From Bacteroidota bacterium (GTDB lineage Bacteria; Bacteroidota; Bacteroidia; Bacteroidales; B39-G9): a stretch of 34,391 bases of DNA. The notes beneath the pieces were generated by a model, which was given only the letters and a program-made list of their open reading frames with translations, ran no database searches and was not told the DNA's origin. Each line of letters opens with the position of its first letter. Positions within the stretch are counted from its first letter, which is position 1. The DNA lies in contig JADFUR010000095.1 in NCBI GenBank assembly GCA_015222055.1, forward strand, positions 1 through 34,391. Direction: 5' to 3'. Shown piece by piece: positions 26,649 through 34,344 of this stretch. The position numbers and the translations under genes were made by a program.

Positions 26649-27728
26649 TTATTTCATAATCCTGCTTTTATTAAGAGCTCTTTGGTATCTTCTTGCGTTA
26701 TTATTATGTTGCCTTAACGATTTAGCAAAAGCATGATATCCTGAGAAATCAGATTTAGCACAAAAATATAAATACGAATGCGTTTCATAATTTAGAACAG
26801 CATCTAATGAAGATATTGATGGTATGCATATTACACCCGGAGGCAAACCTCGGTATTTATAGGTATTATAGGGAGAATCAAAAGATAATTGTTTTTTTAA
26901 AACTCTTTTTATTGAGAAATCACCAATTGCAAAAATTACTGTTGGATCGGCTTGCAGTCGCATTCTTTTTCGTAAACGGTTAATATAAACACCCGCTAAT
27001 CTCCTTTTCTCACTGTTTTTGTTAGTTTCCTCCTCAACAATAGATGCCAAAATACTTACGTCAACTTTTGACAAGCCTATTTTTTCTGCCTTTTTTATTC
27101 TTTTGTCGCTCCAAAACTTCAAATATTCATTATACATTCTGTCGAAAAACTTTTCTGCAGAAGTGTTCCAATAAAATTGATAAGTATTTGGCACAAACAT
27201 ACTCATTACAGTATGTTGCGAAAAATTATATTTAGAAAGGAATTTTTTATTGTTAAGCAATTTTAAAATTTTTGTTGAGTCGGCTTCAATTTGTAATGAA
27301 ATTTTTTGGGCTAATTCTTGTTTTGTCCTGATATTGTTAAAAATTAAATTTAGTGGAGTTTGTTCACCCGAACGCAACAAATTAATTAACTCATTATTAC
27401 TCATTTTATTTTTTATAAAATACCTTCCTGGCTTAACATGAGCGACATAATTTTTTTCTTCGGCAAGCCACTCAAAAGTATTTACATTTACAATAATGTT
27501 ATTTTTAAACAATATTTTTTTTAAATCAATAAAATTGGAGCCGGTTGGAATGTATAAATAATTTGAATGTTTTGTTGTTAATACTACATTTGGCTGAAGC
27601 ACTCTTTTATACATTCGATAAACGTAAGACACTCCAAATATTATTGAAAGAGCTAATGCAGAGATAATTATCTTAAAAAATATTGTTGATTTAAAGCCTT
27701 TATTGTTATTTTTCTTATTCTTATTCAT
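26649..27728 (-). CDS. mltG: Endolytic murein transglycosylase MltG
   Basis: 359 residues. A lysine/asparagine-rich cytoplasmic start (1-17) precedes one membrane helix (about 18-37), then the periplasmic YceG/MltG domain. A LysM-like part at 55-120 (YIPTGSNFIDLKKIL ... VKPGRYFIKNKMSNNELINLL) is followed by the catalytic part with MFVPNTYQFYW and ILASIVEEETNKNSEKRRLAGVYINRL, whose first glutamate (about residue 232) is the catalytic one, then MRLQADPTVIFAIGD and SPYNTYKYRGLPPGVICIPS. It cuts nascent glycan strands in the inner-membrane-proximal peptidoglycan and so sets strand length. All key motifs are intact. It is encoded just upstream of the peptide-binding protein, likely by chance. Confidence 0.95.
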   Translation of the reverse strand: MNKNKKNNNKGFKSTIFFKIIISALALSIIFGVSYVYRMYKRVLQPNVVLTTKHSNYLYIPTGSNFIDLKKILFKNNIIVNVNTFEWLAEEKNYVAHVKPGRYFIKNKMSNNELINLLRSGEQTPLNLIFNNIRTKQELAQKISLQIEADSTKILKLLNNKKFLSKYNFSQHTVMSMFVPNTYQFYWNTSAEKFFDRMYNEYLKFWSDKRIKKAEKIGLSKVDVSILASIVEEETNKNSEKRRLAGVYINRLRKRMRLQADPTVIFAIGDFSIKRVLKKQLSFDSPYNTYKYRGLPPGVICIPSISSLDAVLNYETHSYLYFCAKSDFSGYHAFAKSLRQHNNNARRYQRALNKSRIMK

Positions 27729-27789
27729 AAATTTATACTTTGATAAAAAAGTGCCCGAATTTATAAAAATAAAATTAGTTAATATTATA

Positions 27790-27797
27790 CAAAGATA
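27790..27797 (-). promoter_or_regulatory. Possible -7 element of the mltG promoter
   Basis: The minus strand reads TATCTTTG, an exact match to TAnnTTTG, giving a leader of about 55 bases to the mltG ATG. No TTG is at the proper -33 distance, so the call is weak. Confidence 0.35.
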
Positions 27798-27931
27798 AGA
27801 AAGTTTATAAAATTAGTAAAGTTCATAGAGTTCATAAAGTTGAAAGTTGAAATTTTGGTTGAGAGTAAAAACATATAAACACACTACTTTCAAAGCATAT
27901 AACTTTCTATAGAAAACTGAAAAAAAAGCAT

Positions 27932-28940: not shown

Positions 28941-28965
28941 GGAATAATATAGATTCCTTTTCTTT

Positions 28966-29066
28966 GAAAAGCGACTAAGCGGTTTGCTTACAAAAAATAC
29001 GAAAATTACAAGTCTGTACCTTAGCTTATTACAAAAACTCTAAGCAGCTAAAACTTGATAATTTTA
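28966..29066 (+). repeat. Palindrome-ended repeat, copy A (full length, degenerate)
   Basis: GAAAAGCGACTAAGCGG, then a middle part with GGTTTGCTTACAAAAA, TCTGTACCTTAG and TTATTACAAAA, then CTCTAAGCAGCTAAAACTTGATAATTTT. It aligns base by base with the reverse complement of 33001-33114. The gap from here to 29320 has no gene: it holds this copy, about 160 bases of plain A/T-rich DNA, copy B, and the leader of the lipocalin gene. Confidence 0.82.
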
Positions 29067-29230
29067 AAAAATTAAATACCACTCCCTAACTAGTTGAGCT
29101 TAAAAATATTAAAAAAAAATTATCACCAATTCTTTTTTTTTTATTACCTTGAACAAGAATTTCATTCTAAGCATATAATTCATAATAAAAAACAACTACT
29201 TAATGATTTAAACTTTCGTTTAATTAATTT

Positions 29231-29280
29231 GAAAAGCCGCTAAGCGGCTAAAACTTGATAATTTTAGTTTTCGGAGTAGG
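29231..29280 (+). repeat. Palindrome-ended repeat, copy B (short form)
   Basis: GAAAAGCCGCTAAGCGGC joined directly to CTAAAACTTGATAATTTTAG and then TTTTCGGAGTAGG. It has both ends of the full element but lacks the about 60-base middle. The palindrome GCCGCT-A-AGCGGC (29236-29248) is perfect here. Confidence 0.82.
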
Positions 29281-29320
29281 CTCAACTTTACGTTTATTTA
29301 ATTTTTTAAAAAATTAAAAT

Positions 29321-29854
29321 ATGAAAAGACTAATTATTTGCATAATAACAATGATTATGATACTAAACTCATGCAAAAGTCAGGATGTTAAGATTGATAA
29401 AACGGTTGTAAAAAATTTTAATATTGAAAAATACCTGGGCACATGGTACGAAATTTCTCGTTTTGATCATAGTTTTGAACGCGACTTAGTTGGTGTAACA
29501 GCTACATATTCTTTTCGTGAAGATGGGAAAATAAAAGTTGTAAATAAAGGATTTAAAAAAACTCTTGGCGGTGAGAAATCAGAAGTAGAAGGAAAGGCAA
29601 AAATTCCAAACCCTGAAGTGCCCTCCAAATTAAAAGTTTCTTTTTTCTGGTTTTTCTATGGCGATTATTTTGTTTTAGAGCTGGACGAGAATTATCAATG
29701 GGTTGTTGTTGGCAGCAAGTCCGATAAATATCTCTGGATACTTTCTCGCTCTCCTCAAATGGATGAAATTTTATATAATAATTTGTTAAAAAAAATAAAA
29801 AAACGTGGCTATAATTTAAATGATCTTATACGAATTGAACAAAAAAAAATATAA
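29321..29854 (+). CDS. blc: Lipocalin lipoprotein (Blc family)
   Basis: 177 residues. Lipoprotein signal with lipobox LNSC (Cys18), then the lipocalin first motif YLGTWYEISRFDHSFERDL (GTWYE at 40-44). VTATYSFREDGKIKVVNKGF, KLKVSFFWFFYGDYFVLELDENYQWVVVGS and YLWILSRSP are the following barrel strands and conserved C-terminal motif. Bacterial Blc is an outer-membrane lipoprotein that binds lipids such as lysophospholipids or fatty acids. Here it starts a three-gene unit: the next lipoprotein gene starts 19 bases later and overlaps its downstream partner. The linkage to a TonB receptor is not a usual Blc context. Confidence 0.92.
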   Translation: MKRLIICIITMIMILNSCKSQDVKIDKTVVKNFNIEKYLGTWYEISRFDHSFERDLVGVTATYSFREDGKIKVVNKGFKKTLGGEKSEVEGKAKIPNPEVPSKLKVSFFWFFYGDYFVLELDENYQWVVVGSKSDKYLWILSRSPQMDEILYNNLLKKIKKRGYNLNDLIRIEQKKI

Positions 29855-29873
29855 ACTTAAAAAAAACTTAACA

Positions 29874-30590
29874 ATGAAAATAAATATTAAATTTTTTATA
29901 GCAATTATTTTAATCTGTCTTTTATTCTCTTGCATAACAAAAAAAAACATTCTTGTTTTTGAAAATATTGATAATGGAAAAGACATTTCAATAGAATTTA
30001 CCAAAGGGAAAGCATTTAATCATCCCACCTTCGTAATATGGCTTGAAGATATGGACGGTAGTTATCTCAAAACCCTATTTTTAACAAAAGCTTATGCAAA
30101 TTGTTTGTTTGAGCACAAAATGCTTGGAGATACTCTTTGGCTGAACGAAAAAGGGGAATCGTGCCAGCCGGCAGCTCTCAGTTACTGGACACACAAAAAA
30201 GGAATGATAAACAACAAAACATTAGTTCCTTCAAAAAAAAATAAGTTTGTAGATGCTTACACAGGAGCAACGCCAAAAGGCAGCTTTGTGTTTAATGCAA
30301 AAAAATCTGAAAAAAAACAATATCGACTTTTGGTTGAAATAAATCAAACTTGGGATTGGAATAAATTCTGGACGAATAACAAATACCCTGAAAACTCTGC
30401 ATATAAACACTCTGCCCAACCATCAATAATTTATGGGGTTGCAATAAACAATATGGATTCCACTTTTTATTTAAACCCTATTGGCCATGGCGACCCAAAG
30501 GGCGAAAGCGGAAAATTATTTACTAATATCAGCACCTTAACAAGTGCGAAGCAAATTTTTTCTTCAATTAAAGTAAAAATGAAAAAATGA
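29874..30590 (+). CDS. DUF2271-like lipoprotein
   Basis: The frame opens inside the lipocalin gene at 29820, but the ATG at 29874 (MKINIKFFIAIILICLLFSC) puts a proper lipobox, LFSC, at residue 20, so 238 residues is the natural product. The segments HPTFVIWLEDMDGSYLKTLFLT, VDAYTGATPKGSFVF and KQYRLLVEINQTWDWNKFW recall DUF2271 periplasmic proteins (VAVWxEDxDGxxVxTL, DAxTGATxxxGxY, YRLxVEV), which often accompany PepSY or TonB iron-uptake genes. The match is by eye and only moderate. It overlaps the TonB receptor gene by four bases, so translation is coupled. Confidence 0.68.
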   Translation: MKINIKFFIAIILICLLFSCITKKNILVFENIDNGKDISIEFTKGKAFNHPTFVIWLEDMDGSYLKTLFLTKAYANCLFEHKMLGDTLWLNEKGESCQPAALSYWTHKKGMINNKTLVPSKKNKFVDAYTGATPKGSFVFNAKKSEKKQYRLLVEINQTWDWNKFWTNNKYPENSAYKHSAQPSIIYGVAINNMDSTFYLNPIGHGDPKGESGKLFTNISTLTSAKQIFSSIKVKMKK

Positions 30591-32959
30591 AATATTATAT
30601 CTTAATAATAATTTTGCTGTTTACAATAAATAGTTTTGCACAAAACGGAACTATAAAAGGTAAAATCTCAGATGCCGAAAACAATGACGCACTCCCTTTT
30701 GCCAACATTGTTATTTTCGGAACAAACATTGGCACAACAAGTGATTTTGATGGAAACTTCACTTTTACAGGTTTAAAGCCGGGCTACAAAAAAATTCAAG
30801 TTTCATTTATTGGATACAAAAAGACAACAAGTGAAAATATTTTAGTGAGTAATAATAACTCACCATACATCGAAATTCAATTAGAACAAGATGACAATGT
30901 ATTATCTGAAATAATTATTAAAACAGACCCTTTCAAAAAGAAAGATGAAGCAATTATCTCAATGCAATCAATTGGGGTGAAAGAGATAGAAAGCAACCCG
31001 GGAAGTAACAGAGATATATCTCGTGTGATACAATCGTTCCCCGGAGTAGGTTCAACACCGGCTTTTCGTAACGATGTTATTATTCGCGGTGGCGGACCAA
31101 GCGAAAATCGTTTCTTTTTAGATGATGTTGAAATACCTGTTCTAAACCATTTCTCAACCCAAGGAGCGTCAGGCGGTCCGGTAGGAATTATTAATGCCGA
31201 CTTTATCAGGTCGGTAGATTTTTATTCATCTTCGTTTCCCGCTGCTAAATACAATGCTTTGAGCGGAATTTTAGATTTTAAACAGAAAGACGGTAGTAAA
31301 GATAGAACTAATTATCAAGCTGCCTTAGGTGCCAGCGAAACAGCTCTAACTGTTGACGGCCCTGTTGGTGAAAAAACAAGTTATATATTTTCGGTAAGAA
31401 GGTCATACCTGCAATTTTTGTTTTCTGCAATTGGTCTGCCTTTTCTTCCTACTTTTAACGATTATCAACTAAAAGTTAAAACTAATATTGATAAAAAAAA
31501 CACTTTTACATTAATCAGCATTGGCTCTCTCGATAATTTAACTCTTAACTCAGGGATTGATAATCCTACAGCTTCGCAAGAATATATTTTAAGTCAAATA
31601 CCAATAAATAACCAATGGAGTTATACCATTGGTGGGGTTTATAAGCATTTCTTCGATAAAGGATATCACACTCTTGTGCTGAGCAGAAATATGCTAAACA
31701 ATGAGTTCTACAAATATCCTGACAATAATGAGAATCTTGCAAAAAGTTTTGATTACAATTCGTCTGAAGCCGAAAATAAACTTAGATACGAATATCACAT
31801 AAAAAAAAGCAGTGTAAAATATATATATAGCGTTAATTTAGAATATGCAGATTACACTAACCAGACATCTCAACAGATTTATGTTAACAATTTGCTCATA
31901 AATAGTAAATATGAAACTGATTTAAATGTTTTTAAGTATGGATTTTCAGGACAAGCATCAAAACGATTTCTCGAGAACAGATTATTAATATCTCTTGGAG
32001 TAAGATTGGACGGAAACGATTATAATAAAAACACACAAAATTTATTTAACCAGGCATCGCCACGAATATCTGCATCATACACACTTACACCACAGACAGC
32101 ATTAAACACAGGCGTTGGCAGATATTTTCAACAAGCAACTTACACAACATTAGGTTATAGAAATAATTCAGGAGCCTTAGTTAACGAAGATGCCGTAAAA
32201 TTCATTGGTTTAAATCAGTTTAACTTAGGCGTTGAACATAAATTTACCGAGAAAATATTACTCTCAGTTGAAGGTTTTTACAAAGATTATTTTCAATATC
32301 CTATCGATTTAATAACCGGTGCCAGTTTAGCTAACTCAGGTGCTGATTATAGCTCTGTTGCAGGTGCTTCGCCCGTAAAATTCTCAGGCAAAGGACGAGC
32401 TGTTGGTTTCGAAATTTTAAACCGTTGGAACTTTGAGGATTTTTCTTTGCTTGCTTCTTACACTTTTGTTAGAAGTTTATTTACTGATACTAATAATACA
32501 TATATTCCATCGTCGTGGGATAGTAAAAATTTGCTGACAATTACCGGCTCTAAAGAATTAAAAAACAATTGGAGAATAGGTTTAAAATGGCGATTTGTTG
32601 GCGGATTACCATACACTCCCTACGACCTAACAACTTCGTCGTATGTTGATGTTTGGAATGCTAAAGGACAAGCTTATTTTAATTTCGCACAACTTAACTC
32701 AAACAGGTTTAAGGCGTTTCATCAATTAGACCTGAGAGTTGACAAAAATTTCTTTTTTAATAAGTGGTCTTTAATGTTGTATATAGACATTCAAAATGCT
32801 TATAATTTTCAAAATAAAAGTCAGGATTACATAATTCGTGAAAAAAATCCCGATGGTACTTATCAAACAACAAACAATGGAACACAATATGTATTAAAAA
32901 GAGTAGCAAGCGAATCGGGAACAGTATTGCCATCGGTGGGTGTTATGATTAAATTTTAG
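30587..32959 (+). CDS. TonB-dependent outer-membrane receptor
   Basis: 790 residues. Signal peptide 1-18 (ends NSFAQ), carboxypeptidase-like regulatory domain at about 22-105 (GTIKGKISDAENNDALPFANIVIFGTN, TTSDFDGNFTFTGLKPG), plug domain at about 115-230 (SRVIQSFPGVGSTPAFRNDVIIRGGGPSENRFFLDDVEIP), then the 22-strand barrel, with the terminal phenylalanine in GVMIKF. It imports a ligand across the outer membrane with TonB energy. No SusD partner follows, so it is of the iron/cofactor/peptide type and not a glycan SusC. It is coupled by overlap to the DUF2271-like lipoprotein. Ligand unknown. Confidence 0.95.
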   Translation: MKYYILIIILLFTINSFAQNGTIKGKISDAENNDALPFANIVIFGTNIGTTSDFDGNFTFTGLKPGYKKIQVSFIGYKKTTSENILVSNNNSPYIEIQLEQDDNVLSEIIIKTDPFKKKDEAIISMQSIGVKEIESNPGSNRDISRVIQSFPGVGSTPAFRNDVIIRGGGPSENRFFLDDVEIPVLNHFSTQGASGGPVGIINADFIRSVDFYSSSFPAAKYNALSGILDFKQKDGSKDRTNYQAALGASETALTVDGPVGEKTSYIFSVRRSYLQFLFSAIGLPFLPTFNDYQLKVKTNIDKKNTFTLISIGSLDNLTLNSGIDNPTASQEYILSQIPINNQWSYTIGGVYKHFFDKGYHTLVLSRNMLNNEFYKYPDNNENLAKSFDYNSSEAENKLRYEYHIKKSSVKYIYSVNLEYADYTNQTSQQIYVNNLLINSKYETDLNVFKYGFSGQASKRFLENRLLISLGVRLDGNDYNKNTQNLFNQASPRISASYTLTPQTALNTGVGRYFQQATYTTLGYRNNSGALVNEDAVKFIGLNQFNLGVEHKFTEKILLSVEGFYKDYFQYPIDLITGASLANSGADYSSVAGASPVKFSGKGRAVGFEILNRWNFEDFSLLASYTFVRSLFTDTNNTYIPSSWDSKNLLTITGSKELKNNWRIGLKWRFVGGLPYTPYDLTTSSYVDVWNAKGQAYFNFAQLNSNRFKAFHQLDLRVDKNFFFNKWSLMLYIDIQNAYNFQNKSQDYIIREKNPDGTYQTTNNGTQYVLKRVASESGTVLPSVGVMIKF

Positions 32960-33000
32960 AGAGAATGACAGGCTTTTAAATTTTTTTTCATTTATAAATC

Positions 33001-33114
33001 TACTACGAAAATTAAAATTATTAAGTTTTAGCCACTTAGCGGTTTTGTAATAATCTAAGGTACAGATTTATAACTTTCGTGCTTTTTGTAAGCAAACCAC
33101 TTAGCGGCTTTTCG
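33001..33114 (-). repeat. Palindrome-ended repeat, copy C (full length, inverted)
   Basis: The minus strand reads CGAAAAGCCGCTAAGTGG, GTTTGCTTACAAAAAGCACG, CTGTACCTTAGATTATTACA, CCGCTAAGTGGCTAAAACTT and ends TTTTCGTAGTA. It aligns with copy A over its whole length and with copy B at both ends, in opposite orientation, just after the TonB receptor gene. Confidence 0.85.
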
Positions 33115-33191
33115 GAAAAAATAATTTTTATAAGCGTTTTTATAAATCTAAAAAGTATCTTTCGGAATAAAAAATTTCTAAATAAAAAAAG

Positions 33192-33950: not shown

Positions 33951-34344
33951 AATTACTGTAAGTAAAATTACAGATTATTAATAAAAAATAAATTCAACTT
34001 CTAAGCTTGAGATAATCTCTGACTGCGTCTTTTTATTTTCTGAAAATAACAAAACCAAAATACCCTAAACAAACAAAAACCAATAATTTATTTTTTATCT
34101 CATACAAAACTTTGTAAATTTACCACAACAATAAAAAACTGTATCTAAAACAATGCCTTTTTTGCTACACATTTGTTATAACAAAAAACCCAATTTTTCT
34201 TACAGCTTTAGAGTTCTTGTCGCTTTTTTAAGGACTGAACTTATATTACTATAATTGATATAAGATGCAATAGTGTGTCTTATTGAGGTGTTGGTGGTAA
34301 TTATAGCAGGATGATACAAAGCATTATATTAAAATAAACAGATT
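33951..34344. other. Gene-free leader region before the last open frame
   Basis: No gene or tRNA is visible in these 394 bases. A weak hairpin CTGTAA/TTACAG (33956-33973) lies right after the thioesterase but without a T tract. TTTGTTATAACAAA (34172-34185) is a perfect palindrome. Arms CTATAATT (34249-34256) and AATTATAG (34299-34306) enclose 42 bases that include the G/T-rich TGTGTCTTATTGAGGTGTTG; they could pair in the leader of the next gene. Confidence 0.5.

What the first reader, a model, noticed from the sequence alone, without database searches (positions are those of the whole stretch)
28966..33114. Lipocalin / DUF2271-like / TonB receptor cassette bracketed by copies of one repeat in opposite orientations
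Copies A (28966-29066) and B (29231-29280) lie before the three-gene unit and copy C (33001-33114) lies right after it, inverted. A and C align along about 100 bases. Inverted repeats around an outer-membrane receptor operon could permit inversion, mark an inserted cassette, or be ordinary repeats that settled at operon ends. The cassette codons look like their neighbours, so recent transfer is not obvious.
Basis: partly seen in the sequence, partly recalled or inferred. Interest (0 to 1): 0.6.

Follow-up and report, generated by a model that had tools for sequence, protein, structure and literature searches.

The report
Old mini-transposons beside a receptor operon
The three repeats around this outer-membrane receptor operon are worn copies of a short transposon without its own transposase that is scattered between genes in this bacterium's genome, and their position on both sides of the operon looks like chance rather than a sign that the operon flips or moves.

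Summary
The repeats are real: A and C are inverted copies (93 of 110 bases identical), B a shortened one. They belong to a MITE family of about 130 bp with GARWCNACTCCGAAAA ends and 6-bp target duplications: 14 of 33 elements exact, 0.62 expected. The own genome has at least 51 copies, none more than half inside an ORF. Exact ends occur in 56 of 295 genomes of the order. Elsewhere they enclose IS1182-like transposase genes, twice within exact 6-bp duplications; one 141-bp element keeps a transposase fragment. The bracket is unremarkable: four neighbouring pairs lie 1-5 kb apart, 2.7 expected. The outer ends are decayed, no duplication frames the cassette, A and C are each closer to a third copy than to each other, and their longest exact run is 16 bases. 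Inversion and composite transposition are unsupported, but no relative carrying the locus was found, so they were not tested directly. The DUF2271-like/TonB pair recurs in three other families without these ends. Verdict: ordinary placement of a MITE family I did not find described. A second, oriented repeat at 34067-34292 deserves its own look.

The parts
28955..29067 (+). Copy A of the MITE; 5' terminal repeat decayed (7 of 16 mismatches), 3' terminal repeat not recognisable
   Evidence: model R1 hit 28949-29069, 82.1 bits
29217..29283 (+). Copy B, shortened: reads as a deletion between the two internal CCGCTAAGCGG boxes; 3' end with 1 mismatch. AACTTT lies directly after it (29284-29289) and at 29211-29216, but the left end does not resemble the terminal repeat, so the left border is tentative
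   Evidence: model R1 hit 29167-29289, 37.4 bits
32996..33124 (-). Copy C, inverted relative to A and B; 3' end 2 mismatches, 5' (outer) end 5 mismatches
   Evidence: model R1 hit 32992-33121, 101.5 bits
29321..29854 (+). Bracketed gene 1: lipocalin (Blc-like)
   Evidence: PF08212 153.2 bits; NF007786 163 bits, below its cut-off of 267
29874..30590 (+). Bracketed gene 2: lipoprotein-like, weakly DUF2271-like protein (longest ORF starts at 29820; start at 29874 is my reading)
30587..32959 (+). Bracketed gene 3: TonB-dependent receptor with a carboxypeptidase-regulatory-like N-terminal domain
   Evidence: PF13715, PF00593, PF07715
27706..27860 (.). Probable unoccupied counterpart of a MITE insertion: in same-genus genome G001 a 136-bp copy with AACTTT on both sides (L091:1365-1500) lies directly beside DNA matching window 27706-27832. 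Only that one flank aligns

Best explanation
A, B and C are old, partly decayed copies of one MITE: a non-autonomous DNA transposon of about 130 bp with 16-bp terminal inverted repeats, two internal near-palindromic CCGCTAAGCGG boxes and a 6-bp A/T-rich target duplication. Shown: the family, its ends, the 6-bp duplications, its absence from genes in the own genome, and IS1182-like transposase genes between the same ends in other genomes of the order. Inferred: that such a transposase moved the copies in trans, that the copies in the window are too worn to move, and that two of them came to lie on either side of the operon by separate insertions. On this reading the operon is a bystander, not a transposing or inverting unit.
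For: 51 copies in the own genome (first look capped, so a lower bound), 0 of 51 more than half inside an ORF of 90 aa or more, largest overlap 22%, where ORFs cover 80% of the loci. End pattern with up to one mismatch: 40, 169 and 78 sites in G000, G001, G002; reversed-pattern control 1, 2 and 0. Of 33 end-bounded elements (30 from the genus, 3 from the named genome AUK083) 14 have an exact 6-bp duplication (0.62 expected) and 21 one with at most one mismatch (4.28 expected); exact matches of 4, 5 and 7 bp number 0, 0 and 1. Of 18 order-level elements 12 exact (0.76 expected). Autonomous elements: L153, 1923 bp, AAGATT on both sides; L172, 1829 bp, AATGAT on both sides; L166, 1859 bp, 5 of 6; proteins hit NF033551 (94.6 bits, below cut-off) and PF05598. 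L140: 141-bp element with a 30-aa transposase remnant at 60% identity. Genomes with the transposase have exact ends more often: 6 of 10 against 50 of 285, Fisher P 0.004. Adjacent copies 1-5 kb apart: 4, expected 2.66, P 0.28. A and C are each closer to the copy on contig C48 (88% and 91%) than to each other (82%).
Against: No such transposase was found in the own genus: no match at E 1e-20 in G000 and G001; PF05598 over its cut-off once in G000, in a frame with three stops, and not in G001 or G002. So the partner rests on other genomes. Transposase matches were found in 10 of 295 genomes, exact ends in 56. 12 of 33 elements show no 6-bp duplication within one mismatch (two of these have exact 7- and 10-base matches instead), and 6 of 18 order-level elements no exact one. 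None of the three window copies has both ends intact. Copies under 1 kb apart are in excess (4, expected 0.69, P 0.005), so placement is not fully random; the random model ignores contig breaks and the restriction to non-coding DNA. In same-direction gene pairs 22 of 32 copies point with the genes (P 0.05).
Confidence: 0.9

Rival explanations
1. The cassette is or was a composite unit moved by the outer ends of A and C (MITE-bracketed transposition), which brought the lipocalin, DUF2271-like and TonB genes here.
For: Lipocalin and DUF2271-like genes have no match in 2 of 2 same-genus and 3 of 3 same-family genomes. GC3 of the three genes (0.242, 0.289, 0.263) is the highest of the 28 window genes measured, though the next is 0.239. 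A review passage reports MITEs that mobilise genes (PMC10969869, passages).
Against: Both outer ends are decayed (7 and 5 of 16 mismatches) and the 6 bases beyond them differ (ATAGAT, TTTTTA); this does not exclude an old event. A and C are not each other's nearest copy. A DUF2271-like gene lies beside a similar receptor in G015, G009 and G018, which have no exact family ends. Several of the compared genomes are incomplete (88%, 66%, 77%).
Confidence: 0.04
2. The inverted copies are a recombination switch that flips the operon.
For: Opposite orientation of A/B and C.
Against: The family is spread over the genome and explained by transposition. I did not search for a site-specific recombinase, and no reads or strain-level relatives were available.
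Confidence: 0.02
3. The repeats are RNA, terminator or REP-type elements rather than transposons.
For: One near-intact 130-bp copy folds strongly as single-stranded DNA (z -4.45); C folds with z -2.38 as RNA of its minus strand. 22 of 32 copies point with their neighbours (P 0.05).
Against: Duplicated 6-bp targets and ends shared with transposase-bearing elements. A folds with z -1.18 and C's plus strand with z -1.39; the consensus fold of 27 copies has 7 pairs, one of them with changes on both sides; no Rfam match in the window. Only 2 of 43 copies with both neighbours called lie between convergent genes, where 11% of the intergenic length lies, no sign of terminators. A later regulatory use of single copies is not excluded.
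Confidence: 0.04

Closest known systems
Prokaryotic MITEs in general (review PMC10969869, passages seen)
   Same: 50-500 bp, terminal inverted repeats, target duplications, no coding capacity, moved in trans by a related transposase
   Different: This family and its ends did not appear in the passages or searches made
BrickBuilt and other MITEs of Porphyromonas gingivalis (PMC4596501, passages seen)
   Same: MITE of a relative in the Bacteroidetes, intergenic, terminal repeats resembling those of insertion sequences
   Different: An end printed in the passage (CCGAAAGGTCTC) differs; BrickBuilt carries a 23-nt tandem repeat, this family does not
IS1182 family insertion sequences
   Same: The partner transposase matches NF033551 over residues 22-528 of 579; single gene; about 1.8-1.9 kb; ISPse1 is listed at 1653 bp with 16/16 ends (PMC3281130, table passage)
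   Different: 94.6 bits against a cut-off of 270; 6-bp duplication, whereas ISPse1 is listed with 4

Membership tests
MITE | Short (50-500 bp), no transposase gene, many copies | tested here: met
   129-131 bp typical length; 51, 79 and 16 copies found in three genomes
MITE | Terminal inverted repeats | tested here: met
   16-bp ends in the family; in the window copies only partly preserved
MITE | Target-site duplication of fixed length | tested here: met
   6 bp: 14 of 33 exact, 0.62 expected; 12 of 18, 0.76 expected
MITE | Ends shared with an autonomous element | tested here: met
   L153, L172, L166; element L140 with a transposase remnant. Met in other genera only; none found in the own genus
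MITE | Mobilisation in trans | not testable with these tools
   needs a transposition assay
IS1182 family (partner element) | Curated model score reached | tested here: not met
   NF033551 94.6 bits, cut-off 270; hence 'IS1182-like' only
Composite transposon | Intact outer ends and a target duplication around the unit | tested here: not met
Invertible DNA switch | Both orientations seen in reads or strains | not testable with these tools
   no reads and no relative with the locus

The most novel reading that the evidence does not exclude
An undescribed group of IS1182-related insertion sequences with GARWCNACTCCGAAAA ends and a 6-bp duplication has seeded MITE families through a whole bacterial order (exact ends in 56 of 295 sampled genomes), with the same 130-bp MITE in two families of it, and pairs of such MITEs can carry whole operons; the lipocalin/DUF2271-like/TonB operon, missing from the nearest relatives, arrived that way before the ends decayed.
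Probability: 0.05. Interest if true: 0.5.

Novelty: new member of a known kind. Interest (0 to 1): 0.25.

Why it matters
It removes a tempting but unsupported reading (an invertible or mobile receptor cassette) and gives a MITE family with its ends, its 6-bp duplication and a plausible partner transposase for a poorly studied Bacteroidales lineage. That helps annotation and offers a marker of insertion differences between genomes. Copies 92-94% identical to the genus consensus in a genome of another family suggest that the element crosses family borders.

Tried and rejected
Rfam over the window at gathering thresholds: nothing. RNA consensus fold of 27 copies: 7 pairs, little covariation. PF01609 transposases in the genus: four found, none framed by a pair of the family's ends, so rejected as partner. 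One copy against the phage collection, and an exact end pattern against viral contigs: no match. Cassette synteny in the genus: the 6.7-kb query matched G001 and G002 mainly through repeats (list cut), and the thioesterase had no close match there. The PF05598 hit of the own genome did not match the partner transposases. Rejected readings: composite transposon, inversion switch, terminator/REP element.

Rows and choices behind the counts: the search tools score only part of their first-look candidates (40 per genome, 150), so copy numbers are lower bounds. One search left 3 of 30 copies out of its profile; alignment A1 used 27 near-full copies picked from three genomes. One search took every distinct pair of ends 60-400 bp apart with at most 5 mismatches in total in the loci then held; a few pairs share an end or look spurious. 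One search's 18 elements come from loci that I picked from the listed part, not from all 56 genomes. One search shows two possible left ends for L167. One search used 24 copies of the second repeat, without the window's own; one had no downstream gene, and two share one.

Full report
OBSERVATION. The repeats are present as described. A (28958-29067) and C (33012-33121) are inverted copies over 110 bases at 85%; B pairs with A over 34 and with C over 47 bases at 88-89%. 93 of 110 bases of A and C are identical, with a longest exact run of 16. Copy A finds C in the own genome with E 2.9e-28, so chance is excluded. The bracketed genes are a lipocalin, a lipoprotein-like protein with a sub-threshold DUF2271 match, and a TonB-dependent receptor; the neighbours are a RibD_C-domain gene and an acyl-ACP thioesterase gene.

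THE FAMILY. A search with C gave 27 places in the own genome, 40 in G001 and 9 in G002, and none in the other 18 of 21 genomes. A sequence profile of 27 copies (A1) gave 51 in the own genome, 79 in G001 and 16 in the 66%-complete G002; the first look is capped, so these are lower bounds. The copies share inverted ends, GARWCNACTCCGAAAA and its reverse complement, about 130 bases apart. With up to one mismatch the end occurs 40, 169 and 78 times in G000, G001 and G002; the reversed control 1, 2 and 0 times.

DISTRIBUTION. A 23-base pattern from the interior hit 8 stretches of named genomes, from Bacteroidales bacterium AUK083, Bacteroidales bacterium SW_4_37 and Bacteroidota bacterium CSMAG_443. 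Contig lengths and end positions show the last two to be G002 and G001, and AUK083 to be G055, which the tool puts in another family of the order. Three AUK083 elements are 92-94% identical to the consensus of my 27 copies (121 to 123 of 131 positions). So the element itself is not confined to the genus; I infer transfer between families, but a patchily kept older element is possible. The exact end alone occurs in 56 of 295 genomes of the order; by my reading of the table the reversed control gave one hit in each of 12 genomes.

TARGET DUPLICATION. For every pair of ends 60-400 bases apart in the loci then held I compared the bases beyond: 14 of 33 have an exact 6-base match (0.62 expected from mismatched pairs of flanks) and 21 of 33 one with at most one mismatch (4.28 expected). 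Exact matches of 4, 5 and 7 bases number 0, 0 and 1; with one mismatch allowed, 5 bases give 6 against 3.5 expected. 30 of the 33 are from the genus and 3 from AUK083. Elements from other genomes of the order gave 12 of 18 exact (0.76 expected). This is the mark of a DNA transposon with a 6-bp staggered cut.

THE PARTNER. In L153 (G233) the ends enclose a 579-residue gene, with AAGATT on both outer sides. The protein matches the IS1182 model NF033551 with 94.6 bits (cut-off 270) and PF05598. Matches to it were found in 10 of 295 genomes. L172 (1829 bp) has AATGAT on both sides and L166 (1859 bp) five of six bases; L168 has both ends but stops at the contig end, and L170 has both ends (2 mismatches each) and no duplication; for the other transposase loci I could not fix both ends. 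Genomes with the transposase hold exact ends more often, 6 of 10 against 50 of 285 (Fisher P 0.004). L140, a 141-bp element of G233, has both ends and 30 residues of the transposase at 60% identity; it reads as an internal deletion, although its flanks show no duplication. In the own genus no such transposase was found, so the copies there look orphaned; incomplete assemblies limit this.

WHERE COPIES LIE. Of the 51 copies none is more than half inside an ORF (largest overlap 22%), with ORFs covering 80% of the loci. 32 lie between genes in the same direction, 9 between divergent and 2 between convergent genes, 8 at an edge; the intergenic DNA of the same loci is 64% tandem, 26% divergent and 11% convergent by length. 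In G001 a 136-bp copy with AACTTT on both sides lies directly beside DNA matching window 27706-27832, upstream of the yceG-like gene, whose start matches by eye; the window has no copy there. Only one flank aligns, so this is a probable empty site.

IS THE BRACKET SPECIAL? Neighbouring copies 1-5 kb apart: 4 (contigs C11, C15, C27 and the window), 2.66 expected, P 0.28. The other three bracket unrelated single genes, an amidohydrolase, a glycosyltransferase and an aminotransferase. Pairs under 1 kb are in excess (4, expected 0.69, P 0.005), so some clustering exists. The model is uniform placement without contig breaks. A and C are each closer to the copy on contig C48 (88% and 91%) than to each other (82%), and A is the most diverged of the 27 aligned copies. 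The outer ends carry 7 and 5 mismatches of 16 and the six bases beyond them differ. B has one good end and reads as a deletion between the two internal boxes.

THE OPERON. Lipocalin and DUF2271-like genes had no match in 2 of 2 same-genus and 3 of 3 same-family genomes. Of the 21 genomes, 5 besides the own match the DUF2271-like protein; in 3 of these (G015, G009, G018) a receptor like this one is adjacent, in G018 in the reverse order, and a lipocalin lies within the fetched 1.5-kb flanks of none. Those three genomes hold no exact family ends. GC3 of the three operon genes is the highest of 28, by a small margin for the lipocalin. So patchy inheritance is likely and transfer possible, but nothing ties it to the repeats.

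PRIOR WORK. A full-text search for one form of the end found no paper; searches combining MITE, Bacteroidales and IS1182 terms listed none on such a family by title or start of abstract (in one search 15 of 97 were listed). I saw passages only of PMC10969869, PMC4596501 and PMC3281130. The library lacks most subscription journals and ISfinder was not available, so the family may be catalogued elsewhere.

VERDICT. What stands behind it is a well-supported MITE family with a plausible partner transposase; the operon is most likely a bystander.

Noticed in passing
window 34067-34292 (near the contig end); G000 loci L196-L208 and L007: A second dispersed, non-coding repeat of about 190-220 bp, unrelated to the MITE, with about two dozen matches in the own genome and some in G001 and G002. 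In 23 of 23 copies with a called downstream gene that gene reads in the same direction as the repeat, 7-399 bases on in 22 and 636 in one (two copies share a gene). The upstream gene also reads that way in 19 of 21, so the copies sit in co-oriented gene rows. It may be a shared or mobile promoter/leader or a cassette spacer; its fold is not unusual (z -1.22).
   Followed up: partly
L091:1365-1500 against window 27706-27860: A MITE copy with AACTTT on both sides in same-genus genome G001 beside DNA matching the window upstream of the yceG-like gene; the window has none there.
   Followed up: partly
L051, L054, L057 (AUK083, apparently G055): MITE copies 92-94% identical to the genus consensus in a genome that the tool places in another family.
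   Followed up: partly
G000 contigs C16 17354-17831 and C13 5722-6094: Tight clusters of three and two MITE copies within 0.5 kb, more than uniform placement gives.
   Followed up: no
L088:1501-1874 (G001): A 374-bp stretch with the same ends but a different interior, perhaps a second MITE type.
   Followed up: no
L107:727-2592 (G000) and L109:736-2610 (G001): Long transposase genes (621 and 624 aa) with a DDE_Tnp_1 match and without the family's ends.
   Followed up: partly
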